Assembly (NCBI GenBank): GCA_019638675.1
Contig: JAHBTE010000001.1
Coordinates: 838,605 to 902,604, forward strand
Source of the DNA: Fimbriimonadaceae bacterium
Lineage (GTDB): Bacteria; Armatimonadota; Fimbriimonadia; Fimbriimonadales; Fimbriimonadaceae
DNA: 64,000 nucleotides
Direction: 5' to 3'
The notes beneath the pieces were generated by a model, which searched no databases, was not told where the DNA came from, and saw only the letters and a list, made by a program, of their open reading frames with translations. The translations under genes were made by a program, and so were the position numbers. Shown here in pieces: positions 20,245-25,397 of this stretch; positions within the stretch are counted from its first letter, which is position 1, and every line of letters starts with the position of its first letter.

Positions 20245-20976
20245 ATGCAAAGAGGTCTTTATTCTGCGGCGTCGGGAATGTCGGTGGCGGACAAGTGGCT
20301 GGAAACAATCAGCAACAACTTAGCCAACGCTTCTACAACCGCATACAAACGAGATGCAATCGTTTTTAACGAGGGCTTCGAACGCATGATGTCCGCAGGC
20401 GGCGGCAAGGGTGATCCAATTGGAAAACTCGGCGCCGGCCCAATGGACAAAGGCCGATACACCATTTGGGATGCGGGAATGTTGGTTCCAACCAGCAATC
20501 CGTTCGATATCGGGTTTGCAACTGCTAAAGGCGCTTTCAAAGTACAGACCGAACAAGGCGAATTCTATAGCCGATCGGGCGCGCTTACTTTGAATGACGA
20601 TCGCGAACTCACCACAAAGTCCGGTGAGCGACTCCTCGACGCAAGCGGAAACTCAATCGTTATCCCAACCGGAGGACAGCTTTCTATTACTGAAACTGGA
20701 GAAGTTTCTGTAGACGAGCAAGTTATCGGCAAAATCGCAGTTTACGATGGAGAGTTCATCAAGATTGGTGGCGACCTCTATACATCCAATTCCGCTAAAG
20801 AATTGGGTGAAGGCGAATACGCCATTCAGCAAGGATTCATTGAATCCAGCAACGTAAACGCAATCGAAGAAATGATCTCCATGATCAAATTGAATAAAGC
20901 ATTTGAGATGGCTCAAAAGTCAGCTCAAAGCCAAGACGAATCAACAGAACGGTTACTCCGAATCCTTCAAGGCTAA
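20245..20976 (+). CDS. flgF: Flagellar basal-body rod protein FlgF
   Basis: 243 aa proximal/distal rod-type protein. N-terminal D0 helix MQRGLYSAASGMSVADKWLE with the SNNLANASTTAYKRD rod signature. The central exposed domain is shorter and more divergent than in FlgG, and the C-terminal helix SSNVNAIEEMISMIKLNKAF ends the rod fold. First gene of the flagellar block; FlgF sits between the proximal rod and FlgG. The other rod genes (flgB, flgC, fliE) are not in the window. The call as FlgF rather than a second FlgG rests on order and on its shorter, divergent middle. Confidence 0.88.
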   Translation: MQRGLYSAASGMSVADKWLETISNNLANASTTAYKRDAIVFNEGFERMMSAGGGKGDPIGKLGAGPMDKGRYTIWDAGMLVPTSNPFDIGFATAKGAFKVQTEQGEFYSRSGALTLNDDRELTTKSGERLLDASGNSIVIPTGGQLSITETGEVSVDEQVIGKIAVYDGEFIKIGGDLYTSNSAKELGEGEYAIQQGFIESSNVNAIEEMISMIKLNKAFEMAQKSAQSQDESTERLLRILQG

Positions 20977-21099: not shown

Positions 21100-21888
21100 A
21101 TGATGAGAGCATTAAATACAGCGGGAACCGGAATGGTTTCCCAACAAATGAACTTGGACATCATTGCCAACAACTTGGCAAACGTCAACACTGCTGGCTT
21201 TAAAGGTCAGCGTGCCGAATTCCAAGACCTGATGTACCAGACTTACCGCGCATCTGGTGCCTCGACCCAAGGCGAAGCGCGTTTGCCCCAATCCGCACAA
21301 ATCGGTTTGGGTTCACGCTTTTCCGCTTCGGCAACCCTTTTCACCACTGGTTCAATGAGCAACACCGGCAACGTGCTGGATATTGCGATCAACGGTGACG
21401 GGTTCTTTCAAGTGCAGTTGCCGGATGGAACAACTGCCTACACTCGCGACGGGTCATTCAAAACAGATTCAAACGGATTAGTGGTGACCAGCGACGGTTA
21501 TCCGCTGGTTCCAAATATTACGATTCCAACTGGAGCTCGAGCACTTACGATTTCAGGCGAAGGCTACATCTCAGGAATTCTGCCGGGCAACAACGACCCA
21601 GAAGAACTTGGGCAAATTCAAACCGCGATGTTTACCAACCCAGCTGGTTTGACCAGAGCGGGACAAAACCTTTTTAAAGGCGGCGGAGCCAGCGGGGAAG
21701 CGCAGGTTGTTACCCCTGGACAAGAAGGCAGTGGCACCTTGCTTCACATGATGCTGGAAGGCTCTAACGTGCAGGTGGTTGAAGAGATGGTTAAGATGAT
21801 CACCGCTCAACGCGCTTACGAAATCAACTCGAAAGCGATTCAAACCTCCGACGACATGCTTTCGGTTCTGAACAACCTGAAGAGGTAA
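21100..21888 (+). CDS. flgG: Flagellar distal rod protein FlgG
   Basis: 262 aa. N-terminal MMRALNTAGTGMVSQQMNLD with DIIANNLANVNTAGFKGQRA, the exposed domain INGDGFFQVQLPDGTTAYTR ... VVTSDGYPLVPNITIP, and the C-terminal GSNVQVVEEMVKMITAQRAY. Length and motifs are those of canonical FlgG. It forms the distal rod that the P and L rings surround. It is separated from flgF by 123 bases that contain nested complementary segments. The flgA gene begins five bases after its stop, and that FlgA carries a copy of this protein's exposed domain. Confidence 0.95.
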   Translation: MMRALNTAGTGMVSQQMNLDIIANNLANVNTAGFKGQRAEFQDLMYQTYRASGASTQGEARLPQSAQIGLGSRFSASATLFTTGSMSNTGNVLDIAINGDGFFQVQLPDGTTAYTRDGSFKTDSNGLVVTSDGYPLVPNITIPTGARALTISGEGYISGILPGNNDPEELGQIQTAMFTNPAGLTRAGQNLFKGGGASGEAQVVTPGQEGSGTLLHMMLEGSNVQVVEEMVKMITAQRAYEINSKAIQTSDDMLSVLNNLKR

Positions 21889-21893
21889 TTCTG

Positions 21894-23117
21894 ATGCTCG
21901 CGACAATTCTTAGTCTCGTTCTTGGCAGCACTATCGCCACCCCAATTCAGGTGGATGGCGAGGGCTACATGAGGTTCGCCCAAGGTGACCAGATTGTGTT
22001 TGCAAAACACACTGAACTCACTTGGTCGGCCGGAAAGGTCATCAGCACCGATGGCTTGCCTGTATGGCCGCTGGTGAAAGTAGAGCGAGAGCCCCGAGAG
22101 TTGTCGGTAGATTTGCAAGGGCATATCCAAGCCGTTTACTCAAACGAAGTCATCGAAGTGGGAAGATTAGTTCTCTCGATCTTCCCAGATGATATTCGCC
22201 CGGTAGTCAGCGGCAAGTTCTTAAAGATTTATGGCGATTCAAAGCTAGTTGAGCCAGGTGAAGGTTTAGCTGGAGTTATCCGCCCGTGGAGTTCTCAAAA
22301 GGCGGAAGAAAGCTACGTTCGAGTTCACCTCGACCCTGAAGAATCTCCAGTAAAAACGCAATCTGATTCAATCACTCAGATCAAAAAGGTCGCTAAGACT
22401 GATCATATCGCTGATGAAGCCTGGATCAAGAATGGCGGGATTGAGATCGCTTTCCCTGACATCTCTTCGATGTCTGGCACTGACATCAAGCTGGGCGACG
22501 TAGCTGATATCTATGCGTCAGAAAGCCAACTGCGCGTATTAGCGGAAATCAGCTTGGGCAATGCCCCAACCTTTGGTGTGCCGCGAGTTTTAGATCGCTA
22601 CATCATCAATAGCCGGTTAAAGGCCGCCGGATTTGATGTCGCGAAGGTGCGCATTTCTGGCCCGGTACGAATTCAAATTAAACGGGTTGGTCAAACCATC
22701 ACCCAGCAAATGTTTATCAATACAGCCATCGCAAGCATTAGCGAGCAGTACCCCAGCTTTGAGCCGGAAACCACAAAACCTGTGCCCGACTTAGAAGCAC
22801 CAGAGGGAACCCTTGACTTGCGTGCTGAACAGCCGTTGAAGTCGGGAAGCAATCTCTCGGTTACCGTGGTTGCGTATGTGGATGGCAAGCGTGTGAATTC
22901 CCGCACATTGACATTTGTAAACAAAAGCGTCCCTCTCACGATTAGCAACGGCGACACCGTCACCGTGATCGTGATCAGCCGGGATGTTCGGGTGGAAAGC
23001 ACCGCCAAAGTTAAAAAAGTAGATCGAATTACTGGTCAAGTGACCGTTGAGCTAGCCACTGGAAAAGAACTGGTCGGCAAGCTTAACAAAGAAGGAAAAG
23101 TAGAGGTTCAATTATGA
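21894..23117 (+). CDS. flgA: FlgA P-ring chaperone with a FlgG-like N-terminal domain
   Basis: 407 aa, much longer than the usual 220-250 aa FlgA. A short signal-like helix (1-15) is followed by residues 18-125 that align along their length with the exposed domain of FlgG: VDGEGYMRF / INGDGFFQV, ISTDGLPVWP / VTSDGYPLVP, RELSVDLQGHI / RALTISGEGYI, EVGRLVLSIFPD / ELGQIQTAMFTN and LVEPGEG / VVTPGQEG. The D0 helices of rod proteins are absent. Residues about 160-407 are FlgA proper: IKLGDVADIYAS, LGNAPTFGVPRVLDRYIINS and the C-terminal SAF-type end ITGQVTVELATGKELVG. FlgA binds FlgI in the periplasm before P-ring assembly. The domain fusion is read directly; its purpose is inference. Confidence 0.88.
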   Translation: MLATILSLVLGSTIATPIQVDGEGYMRFAQGDQIVFAKHTELTWSAGKVISTDGLPVWPLVKVEREPRELSVDLQGHIQAVYSNEVIEVGRLVLSIFPDDIRPVVSGKFLKIYGDSKLVEPGEGLAGVIRPWSSQKAEESYVRVHLDPEESPVKTQSDSITQIKKVAKTDHIADEAWIKNGGIEIAFPDISSMSGTDIKLGDVADIYASESQLRVLAEISLGNAPTFGVPRVLDRYIINSRLKAAGFDVAKVRISGPVRIQIKRVGQTITQQMFINTAIASISEQYPSFEPETTKPVPDLEAPEGTLDLRAEQPLKSGSNLSVTVVAYVDGKRVNSRTLTFVNKSVPLTISNGDTVTVIVISRDVRVESTAKVKKVDRITGQVTVELATGKELVGKLNKEGKVEVQL

Positions 23118-23734
23118 AAAAATGGATTGTTCTAGCATTAGCTAGCGTCGTGAGTCTGAGCTGGGCAACGGAAGCCGGCACAGAATCACAAGACCCGACC
23201 GGAAAATCGAACGCTGGTTCGATCTATGAAGGTCAAGTTAAGAACCCTTACATTGACCAAGTGGCGCGGGCAAAAGGCGACATCGTTCTGATCGTTATTG
23301 ATGAGCGCTCTGCTTCAAACTTCGCGGCCAGCACTCAAACCGCAAAAGGCGACTCGACAACTGTTAGTCCAAACATTCTCACTGGCTTGCTGACTCAGCT
23401 GTTTGGGCCGCTTTCTAATAGTGCGACGAGCACAACCAATGGAACCGGTTCTACAAACCAAACCGCAAAGATGTCGGCAACGATGAGTGCGATTGTTAAA
23501 GATGTTCTGCCAAACGGCAACATGATTATTGAAGGCAGTCGCTCGCTGGTCACCAATAAAGAGACTCAAACCTTTGTTCTCAGCGGCATTATCCGGGCGA
23601 CTGACATCACCCCGCAAAACACAATTTCGAGCACCAAAATCGCCGAAGCCGAAATCAAGATGGAAGGCAAAGGCCAGGTGAGTGAACGACAGCGAAAGGG
23701 AATCCTAACGCAAATCTTGGATTGGTTGTTCTAA
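23114..23734 (+). CDS. flgH: Flagellar L-ring protein FlgH lacking a lipobox
   Basis: 206 aa. Signal peptide MKKWIVLALASVVSLSWA, then the conserved L-ring body: GSIYEGQVKNPYIDQVARAKGD, IVLIVIDERSASNFAAST, MSAIVKDVLPNGNMIIEGSR and SGIIRATDITPQNTISSTKI. Canonical FlgH is an outer-membrane lipoprotein with an acylated Cys at the mature N-terminus. This protein has no cysteine anywhere and a normal signal-peptidase I-type site instead. Overlaps flgA by four bases and flgI by one, so tightly coupled. Otherwise the fold segments are intact. Confidence 0.92.
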   Translation: MKKWIVLALASVVSLSWATEAGTESQDPTGKSNAGSIYEGQVKNPYIDQVARAKGDIVLIVIDERSASNFAASTQTAKGDSTTVSPNILTGLLTQLFGPLSNSATSTTNGTGSTNQTAKMSATMSAIVKDVLPNGNMIIEGSRSLVTNKETQTFVLSGIIRATDITPQNTISSTKIAEAEIKMEGKGQVSERQRKGILTQILDWLF

Positions 23735-24948
23735 TGAAGAATTCGTTTTTGAAACTCGTCTCGTTTGCGGCATTGTTGGCTGTTTCGACAGTTGTATTTG
23801 CCCAGAACGGTTCAGCGACTCCTGCGGATGAAAAAGCCGCGATGAAGGCCGCTCAAGATGCTGCCCAAAAGCGCGAAACCGCGATTCGGCAAGCTGAATC
23901 CAACGGTGTTGCGGTAGAAATTGCCGCTATCGGTGGATTCCGAGGCGCCCGATCCAACACGATCATGGGCTACGGTTTGGTCGTTGGTTTAGCTGGCACT
24001 GGCGACAGTAAGCAAGTTTCGGCGACTTCAACTGCTCTTGCAAATGCGCTTACCCGATGGGGAACTTTGGTTGACCCATCTAAGTTCACCAGTAAAAACA
24101 TCGCGATTGTGAGTGTTACTGCAGAGCTTCCAGCATTTGCGGCTCCTGGCAGAAAGATTGACATTACTGTGCAGAGCATTGGTGACGCAAAGAGTTTAGA
24201 AGGCGGATTCCTTCTGCCAACTCCTCTCGGAACCATGTACGACACCAATCTCTCGTTTGCGATTGCCAGTGGATCACTCAGCATTGGAGGATTTAACAGC
24301 GGCAGCAACGGCAGTTCTATCCGAAAAAACCACGCAACGGTTGGTCGTGTGCCAGACGGAGGAGATATTCAACGCGGAGTCGACACCCAATTCGTTTTTG
24401 GCGACGGGTTCCTTTACTTAGACTTAGATCAACCTGATTTCACCACGGCTCAGCGAGTGCGTGACCAGATCGCAAAAAGCTTTCCTGGCCTTGGCGTTAC
24501 CGCGATAGACGCAGTGACCATCGCAATCAAACTACCGAATGCAAAAGACGCGGTAGACGTGATCAGCCAAGTTCAAAAGCTGGAAGTTTATGCAAACACT
24601 GAACCAACGATTGTGATCAACGAACGAACCGGAACTATCGTGATCGGTGGCAACGTCAAGCTTGGCCCTGCATTGATCGCCCACGGTTCGCTTCGCGTGC
24701 AGATTGACACCGAATTCATCACAAGTCAGCCTCTTCCGTTTAGCCAAGGGCAGACCACTGTAACCCCGGTTTCGCAGGTCAACGCAAGTGAACAAATCCC
24801 GCAGGTTGTGGTAGTTGCTCCCAACGCAACTCTGGATGACCTCGCAAAGATTTTCCAAGCGATGGATGTTTCCGCCCGAGACATCATTGCGATCCTCCAA
24901 GCACTGGCGGATCAGGGCGCGCTCAAGGCAAGGATTCGAATTCAATGA
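23734..24948 (+). CDS. flgI: Flagellar P-ring protein FlgI with an N-terminal helical extension
   Basis: 404 aa from the ATG at 23734, overlapping the flgH stop by one base. Signal peptide to about residue 24 (VVFAQ). Then some 35 residues rich in Ala, Lys, Glu and Gln that look helical (DEKAAMKAAQDAAQKRETAI), then the standard P-ring domain beginning IGGFRGARSNTIMGYGLVVG LAGTGDSKQ and ending DIIAILQALADQGALKARI. In ordinary FlgI the mature protein begins almost directly with the IKDL...GVRxNQLIGYGLVVGL segment. The extension is unusual and lies where FlgI would face FlgA or the rod. Confidence 0.95.
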   Translation: MKNSFLKLVSFAALLAVSTVVFAQNGSATPADEKAAMKAAQDAAQKRETAIRQAESNGVAVEIAAIGGFRGARSNTIMGYGLVVGLAGTGDSKQVSATSTALANALTRWGTLVDPSKFTSKNIAIVSVTAELPAFAAPGRKIDITVQSIGDAKSLEGGFLLPTPLGTMYDTNLSFAIASGSLSIGGFNSGSNGSSIRKNHATVGRVPDGGDIQRGVDTQFVFGDGFLYLDLDQPDFTTAQRVRDQIAKSFPGLGVTAIDAVTIAIKLPNAKDAVDVISQVQKLEVYANTEPTIVINERTGTIVIGGNVKLGPALIAHGSLRVQIDTEFITSQPLPFSQGQTTVTPVSQVNASEQIPQVVVVAPNATLDDLAKIFQAMDVSARDIIAILQALADQGALKARIRIQ

Positions 24949-25397
24949 CAGTCAACATTAAACCAATCCGCGCGGATTTCGCCGCTGGACTGCGACAGGA
25001 ATTGGATCGCCGGCTCGGCGCTCCCGGTTCTGAAGTTCGCAAAAGGCTGGAATGCGTCTACGGAAGCCTAATGACCGAAGGGAAGCTTGATCTCGACAAA
25101 TTGCCGAATAAGGCGAAAGCCGATCTGCTCAAGCTCCAAAAGGCAAGTGAAGACTTTGAAGGATTCTTCGTGAAGAAGCTCTTGGCGCAAATGCGCTCAA
25201 CCAGCTTCAGCGAAAAATCAAGCCCGATGATGGACTTTGCCAAGGAAGGGATGGATGACGCCATCGCCGGACAAGCGGCAAAAGGCCACGGATCAATCGG
25301 CATCGCTCGAACAGTTTTTCTGGCTCAGGGTCTGCGCGTTGTGCAAGATTCTGCCGAGCCTCTGACCAAATCTGAAACCAAACCAACAAATTCGTAA
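24945..25397 (+). CDS. flgJ: Flagellar rod-binding protein FlgJ (N-terminal domain only)
   Basis: 150 aa. The Rod-binding domain is visible at LQKASEDFEGFFVKKLLAQM followed by RSTSF and MMDFAKEGMDDAIAGQAAKG, the FlgJ N-terminal signature. The C-terminal glucosaminidase domain found in enteric FlgJ is absent, as in many non-gammaproteobacteria, so peptidoglycan opening must use another enzyme. Overlaps flgI by four bases. Confidence 0.88.
   Translation: MTVNIKPIRADFAAGLRQELDRRLGAPGSEVRKRLECVYGSLMTEGKLDLDKLPNKAKADLLKLQKASEDFEGFFVKKLLAQMRSTSFSEKSSPMMDFAKEGMDDAIAGQAAKGHGSIGIARTVFLAQGLRVVQDSAEPLTKSETKPTNS

What the first reader, a model, noticed from the sequence alone, without database searches (positions are those of the whole stretch)
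21894..23117. FlgA P-ring chaperone carries a copy of the FlgG rod protein's exposed domain
Seen: residues 18-125 of this 407-aa FlgA align throughout with the exposed domain of FlgG, whose gene ends five bases earlier. Matching blocks are VDGEGYMRF with INGDGFFQV, ISTDGLPVWP with VTSDGYPLVP, RELSVDLQGHI with RALTISGEGYI, EVGRLVLSIFPD with ELGQIQTAMFTN, and LVEPGEG with VVTPGQEG. The rod's D0 helices are missing. The normal FlgA domains follow. Known: FlgA is a periplasmic chaperone for FlgI, and the P ring assembles around the FlgG rod. Inference: a rod-mimic domain could template or cap FlgI before it meets the real rod, or dock the chaperone to the growing rod tip. I know of no described FlgG-FlgA fusion.
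Basis: partly seen in the sequence, partly recalled or inferred. Interest (0 to 1): 0.78.

Follow-up and report, generated by a model that had tools for sequence, protein, structure and literature searches.

The report
Ring chaperone carrying a rod domain
In one group of little-studied bacteria, the helper protein that builds a bearing ring around the flagellum's drive shaft carries a diverged copy of the shaft protein's own outer domain, which may tell the helper where to put the ring.

Summary
Residues ~15-134 of this 407-aa FlgA form a complete, diverged FlgG-type D1 domain, joined by a disordered linker to a FlgA core. A profile of 42 relatives hits Salmonella FlgG (E=5.9e-15) and Salmonella FlgA (1.9e-7); the predicted domain matches FlgG D1 at Z 16.3. 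By my count, 76 of 99 genomes of its order with any match have the fusion, and none of 97 matching genomes elsewhere in the phylum. The FlgA domains form one clade, are under purifying selection in the two pairs that could be measured, and were apparently lost two or three times. It is an old paralogous domain, not a recent copy. It has lost most of FlgG's near-invariant charged residues and gained conserved basic ones; net charge rose from about -6 to -1. That argues against simple mimicry of the acidic rod surface that FlgI binds, though acid at two key positions is kept in about two thirds. I favour a rod-addressing role, inferred and untested. The client FlgI is extended at its N-terminus in the same clade. 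I found no published description.

The parts
21894..21935 (+). FlgA residues 1-14: short hydrophobic leader (MLATILSLVLGSTI), no Lys/Arg after the initiator; presumed export signal
   Evidence: pLDDT under 50 at 1-4 and 7-10
21936..22295 (+). FlgA residues 15-134: FlgG-type D1 domain
   Evidence: BLASTP; Pfam/NCBIfam; PDB profile; model and fold match; shuffle control
22296..22415 (+). FlgA residues 135-174: linker, pLDDT under 50 at 136-164, variable in length among relatives (0-62 aa, median 18), rich in Pro/Thr/Ala/Val/Ser
22416..23114 (+). FlgA residues 175-407: FlgA chaperone core; residues 348-407 correspond to the C-terminal (D3) domain that binds FlgI in Salmonella; stop codon 23115-23117
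   Evidence: 3tee E=1.9e-7; 3vjp Z 9.9
21100..21888 (+). flgG, distal-rod protein with D0 and D1 parts; its own D1 (residues 91-222) is 21370-21765
   Evidence: D1 limits from PMC5288503
20245..20976 (+). flgF, proximal-rod protein
23114..23734 (+). flgH, L-ring protein; overlaps the end of flgA by 4 bases
23722..24948 (+). flgI, P-ring protein, client of FlgA; has Lys at both positions that I equate with Salmonella Lys-63/Lys-95; likely start at the ATG at 23734
23800..23907 (+). flgI residues ~27-62: N-terminal extension typical of this clade, predicted helix 34-61
24945..25397 (+). FlgJ-like rod-binding protein
   Evidence: Rod-binding E=7.4e-5, 23.7 bits, just below the 25.1 cut-off

Best explanation
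This is a FlgA P-ring chaperone that, in an ancestor of a Fimbriimonadaceae-containing clade of Armatimonadota, gained the outer (D1) domain of a FlgG-type rod protein at its N-terminus without the rod-forming D0 helices. SHOWN by sequence, predicted fold and phylogeny: the domain's identity, its monophyly, purifying selection on it, and a disordered tether to a FlgA core. INFERRED: it came from a duplicated flgG, which sits next door; the C-terminal FlgA domain still binds FlgI, as in Salmonella; and the rod-type domain, now with conserved basic residues where the rod is neutral or acidic, docks on the acidic surface of the assembled FlgG rod. It would thus be a built-in address that brings FlgI to the rod and times P-ring assembly there. 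It would help without being indispensable, since some lineages have lost it with the operon intact. Confidence that it is a FlgG-D1/FlgA fusion: 0.97. Confidence in the rod-addressing mechanism: about 0.4, given below.
For: Domain identity. Retention: fused in 76 of 99 order genomes with any match, 0 of 97 matching genomes elsewhere in the phylum (my count). One clade, 100/100. Purifying selection on D1: 0 nonsynonymous against 19 synonymous differences in the pair L001/L002 (dS 0.27), omega 0.04 in L004/L005; two more distant pairs were saturated. D1 and the last domain (346-407) are the most conserved parts (32% mean pairwise identity each; 25-27% for the rest of the core, 14% for the linker). 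Charge: net D1 charge -1.2 against -5.9 for FlgG of fused genomes; less negative in 37 of 40 paired genomes; basic residues at FlgG positions 104 (38/41), 172 (35/41), 200 (30/41), 215 (26/41), 108 (25/41), 111 (24/41), against at most 4 of 43 in FlgG of fused genomes at each. The rod surface is acidic (D109, D154, E203) and FlgI is thought to bind it through Lys-63/Lys-95 (PMC8298488, PMC5288503; passages). Those FlgI positions are Lys or Arg in 38/41 fused genomes each. FlgA has been proposed as a FlgI 'pilot', the sorting mechanism being unknown (PMC4895218, Discussion).
Against: No interaction has been measured or modelled; only single chains could be folded. Acid is kept at positions 109 (27/41) and 154 (26/41, more often than in FlgG of fused genomes, 14/43), which would suit FlgI capping instead. 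The window's own protein has Gly and Gln there, and Asp at the position (115) where most relatives are basic. Where the basic residues lie in three dimensions was not examined, as no coordinates were available. Near-invariant FlgG residues are lost (D94, D117, K121, D123); if they serve rod packing, which I did not test, docking by the rod's own contacts is unlikely. G046, G126 and G127 lack the domain with flgF-flgG-flgA-flgH-flgI in place, so it is not essential.
Confidence: 0.4

Rival explanations
1. Rod-mimic cap or template: the D1 domain occupies the rod-binding inner face of FlgI (Lys-63/Lys-95) until FlgI is handed to the real rod, preventing premature ring closure.
For: FlgG-type D1 fold. 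Positions 109 and 154, which face FlgI in Salmonella, are acidic in 27 and 26 of 41 FlgA D1 domains; 154 is acidic more often than in FlgG of fused genomes, 14/43. The FlgI positions are Lys or Arg in 38/41 each.
Against: Net charge of D1 is -1.2 against -5.9 in FlgG; position 203 is never acidic (0/41) and is hydrophobic in 38/41; 34 of 41 have a basic residue at 108 or 111, flanking 109. That would set like charges against each other.
Confidence: 0.25
2. The D1 domain was recruited for another partner or for stability: for example peptidoglycan near the ring, FlgH, or the N-terminal extension of FlgI, which is long in the same clade.
For: The conserved basic residues could serve any acidic partner. 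FlgI is extended in the same clade: median 41 aa in 34 family-f1 fused genomes and 17-34 aa in 5 f5/f3 ones, against 1-12 aa in 19 unfused; in the window FlgI the extension is a predicted helix.
Against: The two D1-lost f1 genomes L083 and L084 keep long FlgI extensions (41 and 50 aa), and one unfused genome (L088) has a long Pro-rich extension, so the traits are not strictly coupled. Residues 1-11 of Salmonella FlgI lie in the P ring's outer-rim domain (PMC8298488 section 7), not the rod-facing one.
Confidence: 0.25
3. A neutral or decaying fusion without a function of its own.
For: Absent in G046, G126 and G127 with intact operons.
Against: Retained in 76 genomes, omega of 0 and 0.04 in two pairs, and 9 of 120 D1 columns at 90% or more identity.
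Confidence: 0.08
4. Chance resemblance, frame error or assembly artefact.
For: Weak single-sequence library hits.
Against: 300 shuffles reach at most 22.3 bits against 37.4; the same architecture in 76 assemblies; fold match Z 16.3.
Confidence: 0.01

Closest known systems
FlgA, flagellar P-ring chaperone of Salmonella (3tee, 3vjp, 3vki; PMC4895218)
   Same: C-terminal domain fold (348-407 against 139-198, Z 9.9 over 59 residues); profile match E=1.9e-7; gene beside flgH-flgI
   Different: Salmonella FlgA has domains D1-D3 only (PMC4895218) and no FlgG-type domain. Here a 120-residue FlgG-type domain and a linker precede the core, which is itself divergent.
FlgA of Thermotoga maritima (3frn)
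   Same: FlgA with an extra N-terminal domain, D0, residues 17-84 (PMC4895218)
   Different: Its aligned range 17-283 falls on residues 182-407 of this protein (Z 7.1, rmsd 9.0, 120 residues), so its extra domain more likely corresponds to part of the core here than to the FlgG-type domain. The weak match does not settle it.
FlgG distal-rod protein, D1 domain (6jf2, 5wrh, 7cbm)
   Same: Complete D1 fold, FlgG 91-224 against FlgA 14-139, Z 16.3; most fold glycines and Pro-138 kept
   Different: No D0 helices; most near-invariant charged residues changed; joined to FlgA. FlgE's D1 is tied on fold (Z 15.6); sequence favours FlgG (E=5.9e-15 against 6.7e-8 for FlgE).

Membership tests
FlgA / ChapFlgA P-ring chaperone | C-terminal ChapFlgA (flgA_cterm) domain | tested here: met
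   A1 profile hits 3tee E=1.9e-7; fold Z 9.9 to 3vjp; TIGR03170 in 28 of 42 and PF13144 in 18 of 42 at E<=0.001; the window protein alone is below the curated cut-offs
FlgA / ChapFlgA P-ring chaperone | Gene beside the P-ring and L-ring genes | tested here: met
   flgF-flgG-flgA-flgH-flgI order in the window; flgA followed by flgH and flgI in most fetched loci
FlgA / ChapFlgA P-ring chaperone | Sec signal peptide | tested here: inconclusive
   Hydrophobic leader present, but only 3 of 41 fused FlgA have Lys/Arg in residues 2-6, against 16 of 26 unfused (some unfused starts chosen by hand); no signal-peptide predictor was available
FlgA / ChapFlgA P-ring chaperone | Binds FlgI through its C-terminal domain | not testable with these tools
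   Shown for Salmonella in PMC4895218; no complex prediction available
FlgE/F/G D1 domain (PF22692) | D1 sequence family and fold | tested here: met
   29 of 42 members at E<=0.001; two of 8 genomes of the genus have the FlgA domain over Pfam's cut-off (G004, G005); fold Z 16.3. The window protein alone is below cut-off
FlgG rod protein (as a whole) | N- and C-terminal D0 helices that form the rod | tested here: not met
   No Flg_bb_rod or Flg_bbr_C match in FlgA, both present in the neighbouring FlgG; no helix before residue 175 in the model

The most novel reading that the evidence does not exclude
A P-ring chaperone that carries its own piece of the drive shaft as an address tag: the rod-derived domain, recharged from acidic to near-neutral with conserved basic residues, recognises the finished rod and delivers FlgI to it, while FlgI itself is extended by a new N-terminal helix in the same clade. 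Ring placement would then be written into a chaperone by taking a domain from the structure that the ring encircles.
Probability: 0.35. Interest if true: 0.78.

Novelty: new variant of a known kind. Interest (0 to 1): 0.62.

Why it matters
How FlgI, free in the periplasm, finds the rod at the right time is open; the structural paper on FlgA calls the sorting mechanism unknown and suggests that FlgA may be a pilot (PMC4895218, Discussion). A natural FlgA that carries a rod domain turns that into a direct test: does the extra domain bind rods, FlgI or neither? It is also a clear case of a structural part of a machine being copied onto the helper that assembles the neighbouring part, kept across a large clade. 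Current family models would not name it: the single protein scores below the Pfam and NCBIfam cut-offs for both halves.

Tried and rejected
Recent duplication or gene conversion from the neighbouring flgG: rejected, because the FlgA D1 domains form one clade apart from FlgG.

Electrostatic mimicry of the rod as the whole story: weakened by the charge counts. My first grouping of FlgG put three FlgG from fused genomes (L034, L095, L096) with the unfused; one search repeats the counts with the right grouping, and the report uses.

A leader without Lys/Arg as a hallmark of the fusion: not claimed, because many unfused FlgA of family f2 also lack it (several of these starts were chosen by hand or by pattern).

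Fusion elsewhere. A ChapFlgA scan of 397 relatives (207 with a match) pointed to 41 genomes of other phyla; 0 of these 41 showed a fused protein (32 of 41 gave any match). Sweeps of the phyla of five of those genomes showed none among 1, 8, 2, 4 and 345 genomes; only 1, 5, 0, 2 and 26 gave a match at the strict thresholds used, and rang nowhere and so shows nothing. Matches there that span both parts have stop codons inside, as expected of neighbouring flgG and flgA genes. This is a sample, not a survey of all bacteria. The genome-contig scan returned only the near-identical ACE_ARM8 locus.

Coupling of the FlgI extension to the FlgA domain: not strict.

The fold list also shows Tudor and hot-dog thioesterase matches to parts of the core, and weak SPT5 matches; read as common small folds.

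Full report
WHAT IS THERE. The window holds flgF (20245-20976), flgG (21100-21888), flgA (21894-23117), flgH (23114-23734), flgI (23722-24948) and a FlgJ-like gene (24945-25397) in one direction. Residues 18-129 of the 407-aa FlgA align with FlgG 95-214 (BLASTP E=3e-8 for that pair, 23% identity). The domain scores 37.4 bits, against a best of 22.3 in 300 shuffles; against FlgF it scores 19.6 bits, within the shuffle range. Single-sequence library scans are weak but agree: Pfam LlgE_F_G_D1 E=0.0013, below its cut-off, and NCBIfam FlgG E=0.0011.

FAMILY-LEVEL PROOF. I fetched FlgA from relatives and aligned 42 fused proteins (A1), 42 of the 76 found later; the contig-truncated L034 was left out, and the near-duplicate L002 was dropped from residue counts (hence 41). 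The profile hits solved Salmonella FlgG at E=5.9e-15 over FlgG 92-228, hook FlgE at 6.7e-8, and Salmonella FlgA 3tee at E=1.9e-7. Member by member, 35 of 42 match NCBIfam FlgG, 29 of 42 match Pfam D1, 28 of 42 match flgA_cterm and 18 of 42 match ChapFlgA at E<=0.001. The AlphaFold2 model has mean pLDDT 86.6 and pTM 0.50, with a confident domain from about 11 to 130, pLDDT under 50 at 136-164 and a confident core from about 175. VIA-align gives FlgG 6jf2 Z 16.3, rmsd 2.2 over 125 residues (model 14-139, FlgG 91-224), with FlgE's D1 tied at Z 15.6, and FlgA 3vjp Z 9.9 over 59 residues of the C-terminal domain. FlgG D1 is residues 91-222 (PMC5288503, passages), so the whole D1 is present and no D0. 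In this genome four places carry the domain family; by position three are FlgG, FlgF and FlgA, and the fourth, in a 425-aa frame elsewhere on the chromosome, is presumably FlgE.

DISTRIBUTION AND HISTORY. In the phylum sweep (291 genomes, 196 with a match, which may be FlgA, FlgG or both) I counted by eye uninterrupted fused proteins in 76 genomes; a few of these end at contig edges. They are 70 of the 73 family-f1 genomes with any match, 5 of 6 in f5, and 1 of 1 in f3. None was fused among 18 matching genomes of f2, 1 of f4, or the 97 matching genomes outside the order. The other three f1 genomes are G126 and G127 (FlgA without the domain) and G128 (a weak match only). The match list was cut at its weak end; a fused protein would score high. 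Listed matches outside the order that span both parts have stop codons inside, and in the nine outside loci that I opened flgG and flgA are separate neighbouring genes, so adjacency is probably ancestral. The closest named genome is Fimbriimonadaceae ACE_ARM8, 97% identical. In a tree of 139 D1 domains (41 FlgA, 57 FlgG, 41 FlgF; few columns, bootstrap not settled) the FlgA domains form one clade, 100/100. In a quick FlgH+FlgI tree of 64 genomes the fused lineages f1, f5 and f3 are contiguous next to f4, f2 and the other classes, and four changes are needed. That is one gain and two or three losses if the root lies among the other classes. The losses are G046 (f5) and G126/G127 (f1), each with flgF-flgG-flgA-flgH-flgI in place. 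In other phyla I found none: 0 of 41 genomes, and 0 in the samples, with the limits told under Tried and rejected.

SELECTION. In the pair L001/L002 the domain has 0 nonsynonymous and 19 synonymous differences (dS 0.27); in L004/L005 omega is 0.04. Two more distant pairs are saturated. The domain and the last domain of the core are the most conserved parts (32% mean pairwise identity each); the linker is the least (14%).

HOW IT PROBABLY WORKS. In Salmonella, FlgI Lys-63 and Lys-95 lie close to the rod, whose surface acids are FlgG Asp-109, Asp-154 and Glu-203 (PMC8298488, passages and section 7; the acids also in PMC5288503). Window FlgG matches Salmonella FlgG without a gap over residues 3-259, so the numbering carries over. 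In FlgI both positions are Lys or Arg in 38 of 41 fused genomes (I placed the Salmonella numbers by their 32-residue spacing, the Salmonella FlgI sequence being recalled). In the FlgA domain, 109 is acidic in 27 of 41, 154 in 26 of 41 and 203 in 0 of 41. FlgG of fused genomes has 33, 14 and 15 of 43; FlgG of 14 unfused genomes has 10, 10 and 5. FlgG's near-invariant D94, D117, K121 and D123 are mostly gone from FlgA. Basic residues stand at 104 (38/41), 172 (35/41), 200 (30/41), 215 (26/41), 108 (25/41) and 111 (24/41). Net charge is -1.2 against -5.9, and less negative in 37 of 40 paired genomes. So the fold is kept while the surface is remade towards basic. That argues against straightforward mimicry of the acidic rod and for binding to something acidic. 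The rod surface is the obvious candidate, given the domain's origin and FlgA's job. In this reading the C-terminal domain holds FlgI (shown for Salmonella, PMC4895218), the linker gives reach, and the D1 domain finds the rod. This is inference. The retained acids at 109 and 154 keep the capping model alive, and binding elsewhere is possible.

THE CLIENT CHANGED TOO. FlgI in the same clade has an N-terminal extension between signal peptide and first conserved block: 28-61 aa, median 41, in 34 f1 fused genomes; 17-34 in 5 f5/f3 fused; 41 and 50 in the two D1-lost f1 genomes; 13 in the D1-lost f5 genome; 1-12, median 4, in 19 unfused. Three genomes escaped the search pattern: L006, L010 and the unfused L088, which has a long Pro-rich extension. 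In the window FlgI the extension is a predicted helix, 34-61. The traits share a clade but are not strictly coupled.

NOVELTY. No paper in the held library turned up that describes a FlgG-type domain in FlgA, by the searches. I saw search listings only, apart from four papers seen in part: PMC8298488 (passages, section 7), PMC4895218 (abstract, part 1 of the Results, Discussion), PMC5288503 (passages) and PMC9254593 (passages). Most subscription journals are not held. It is a new variant of a known chaperone. Interest 0.62: surprising architecture, old and selected, with an open question made testable; held back because the mechanism is untested.

Noticed in passing
23800-23907 (FlgI residues ~27-62): FlgI carries an N-terminal extension, predicted as a 28-residue helix (34-61); in most family-f1 relatives it ends in an AE..G(V/I)-like motif. 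It is absent or very short in 19 unfused relatives but long in unfused L088.
   Followed up: partly
21894-21935 and relatives: The leader of fused FlgA is short and nearly always lacks Lys/Arg (3 of 41 with one in residues 2-6) and runs almost directly into the first D1 strand; in six of 42 the invariant glycine is already residue 17-19. Several unfused f2 proteins also lack the charge.
   Followed up: partly
L083 (G126), L084 (G127), L047 (G046): Apparent secondary loss of the D1 domain: FlgA of about 260 aa with a Lys/Arg-bearing leader, in otherwise intact flgF-flgG-flgA-flgH-flgI clusters.
   Followed up: partly
23114-23734 (FlgH): This FlgH has no cysteine at all (read), whereas FlgH is described as carrying a lipid-modified cysteine (PMC4895218), so the L ring may not be lipid-anchored here.
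   Followed up: no
FlgA residues 179-267: Fold match (Z 9.4) to 3g74, a protein of unknown function from Eubacterium ventriosum; it may be a stand-alone relative of a FlgA domain.
   Followed up: no
FlgG position 154 in fused genomes: Position 154, acidic in 10 of 14 FlgG from unfused genomes, is acidic in only 14 of 43 FlgG from fused genomes, while the FlgA domain is acidic there in 26 of 41.
   Followed up: no
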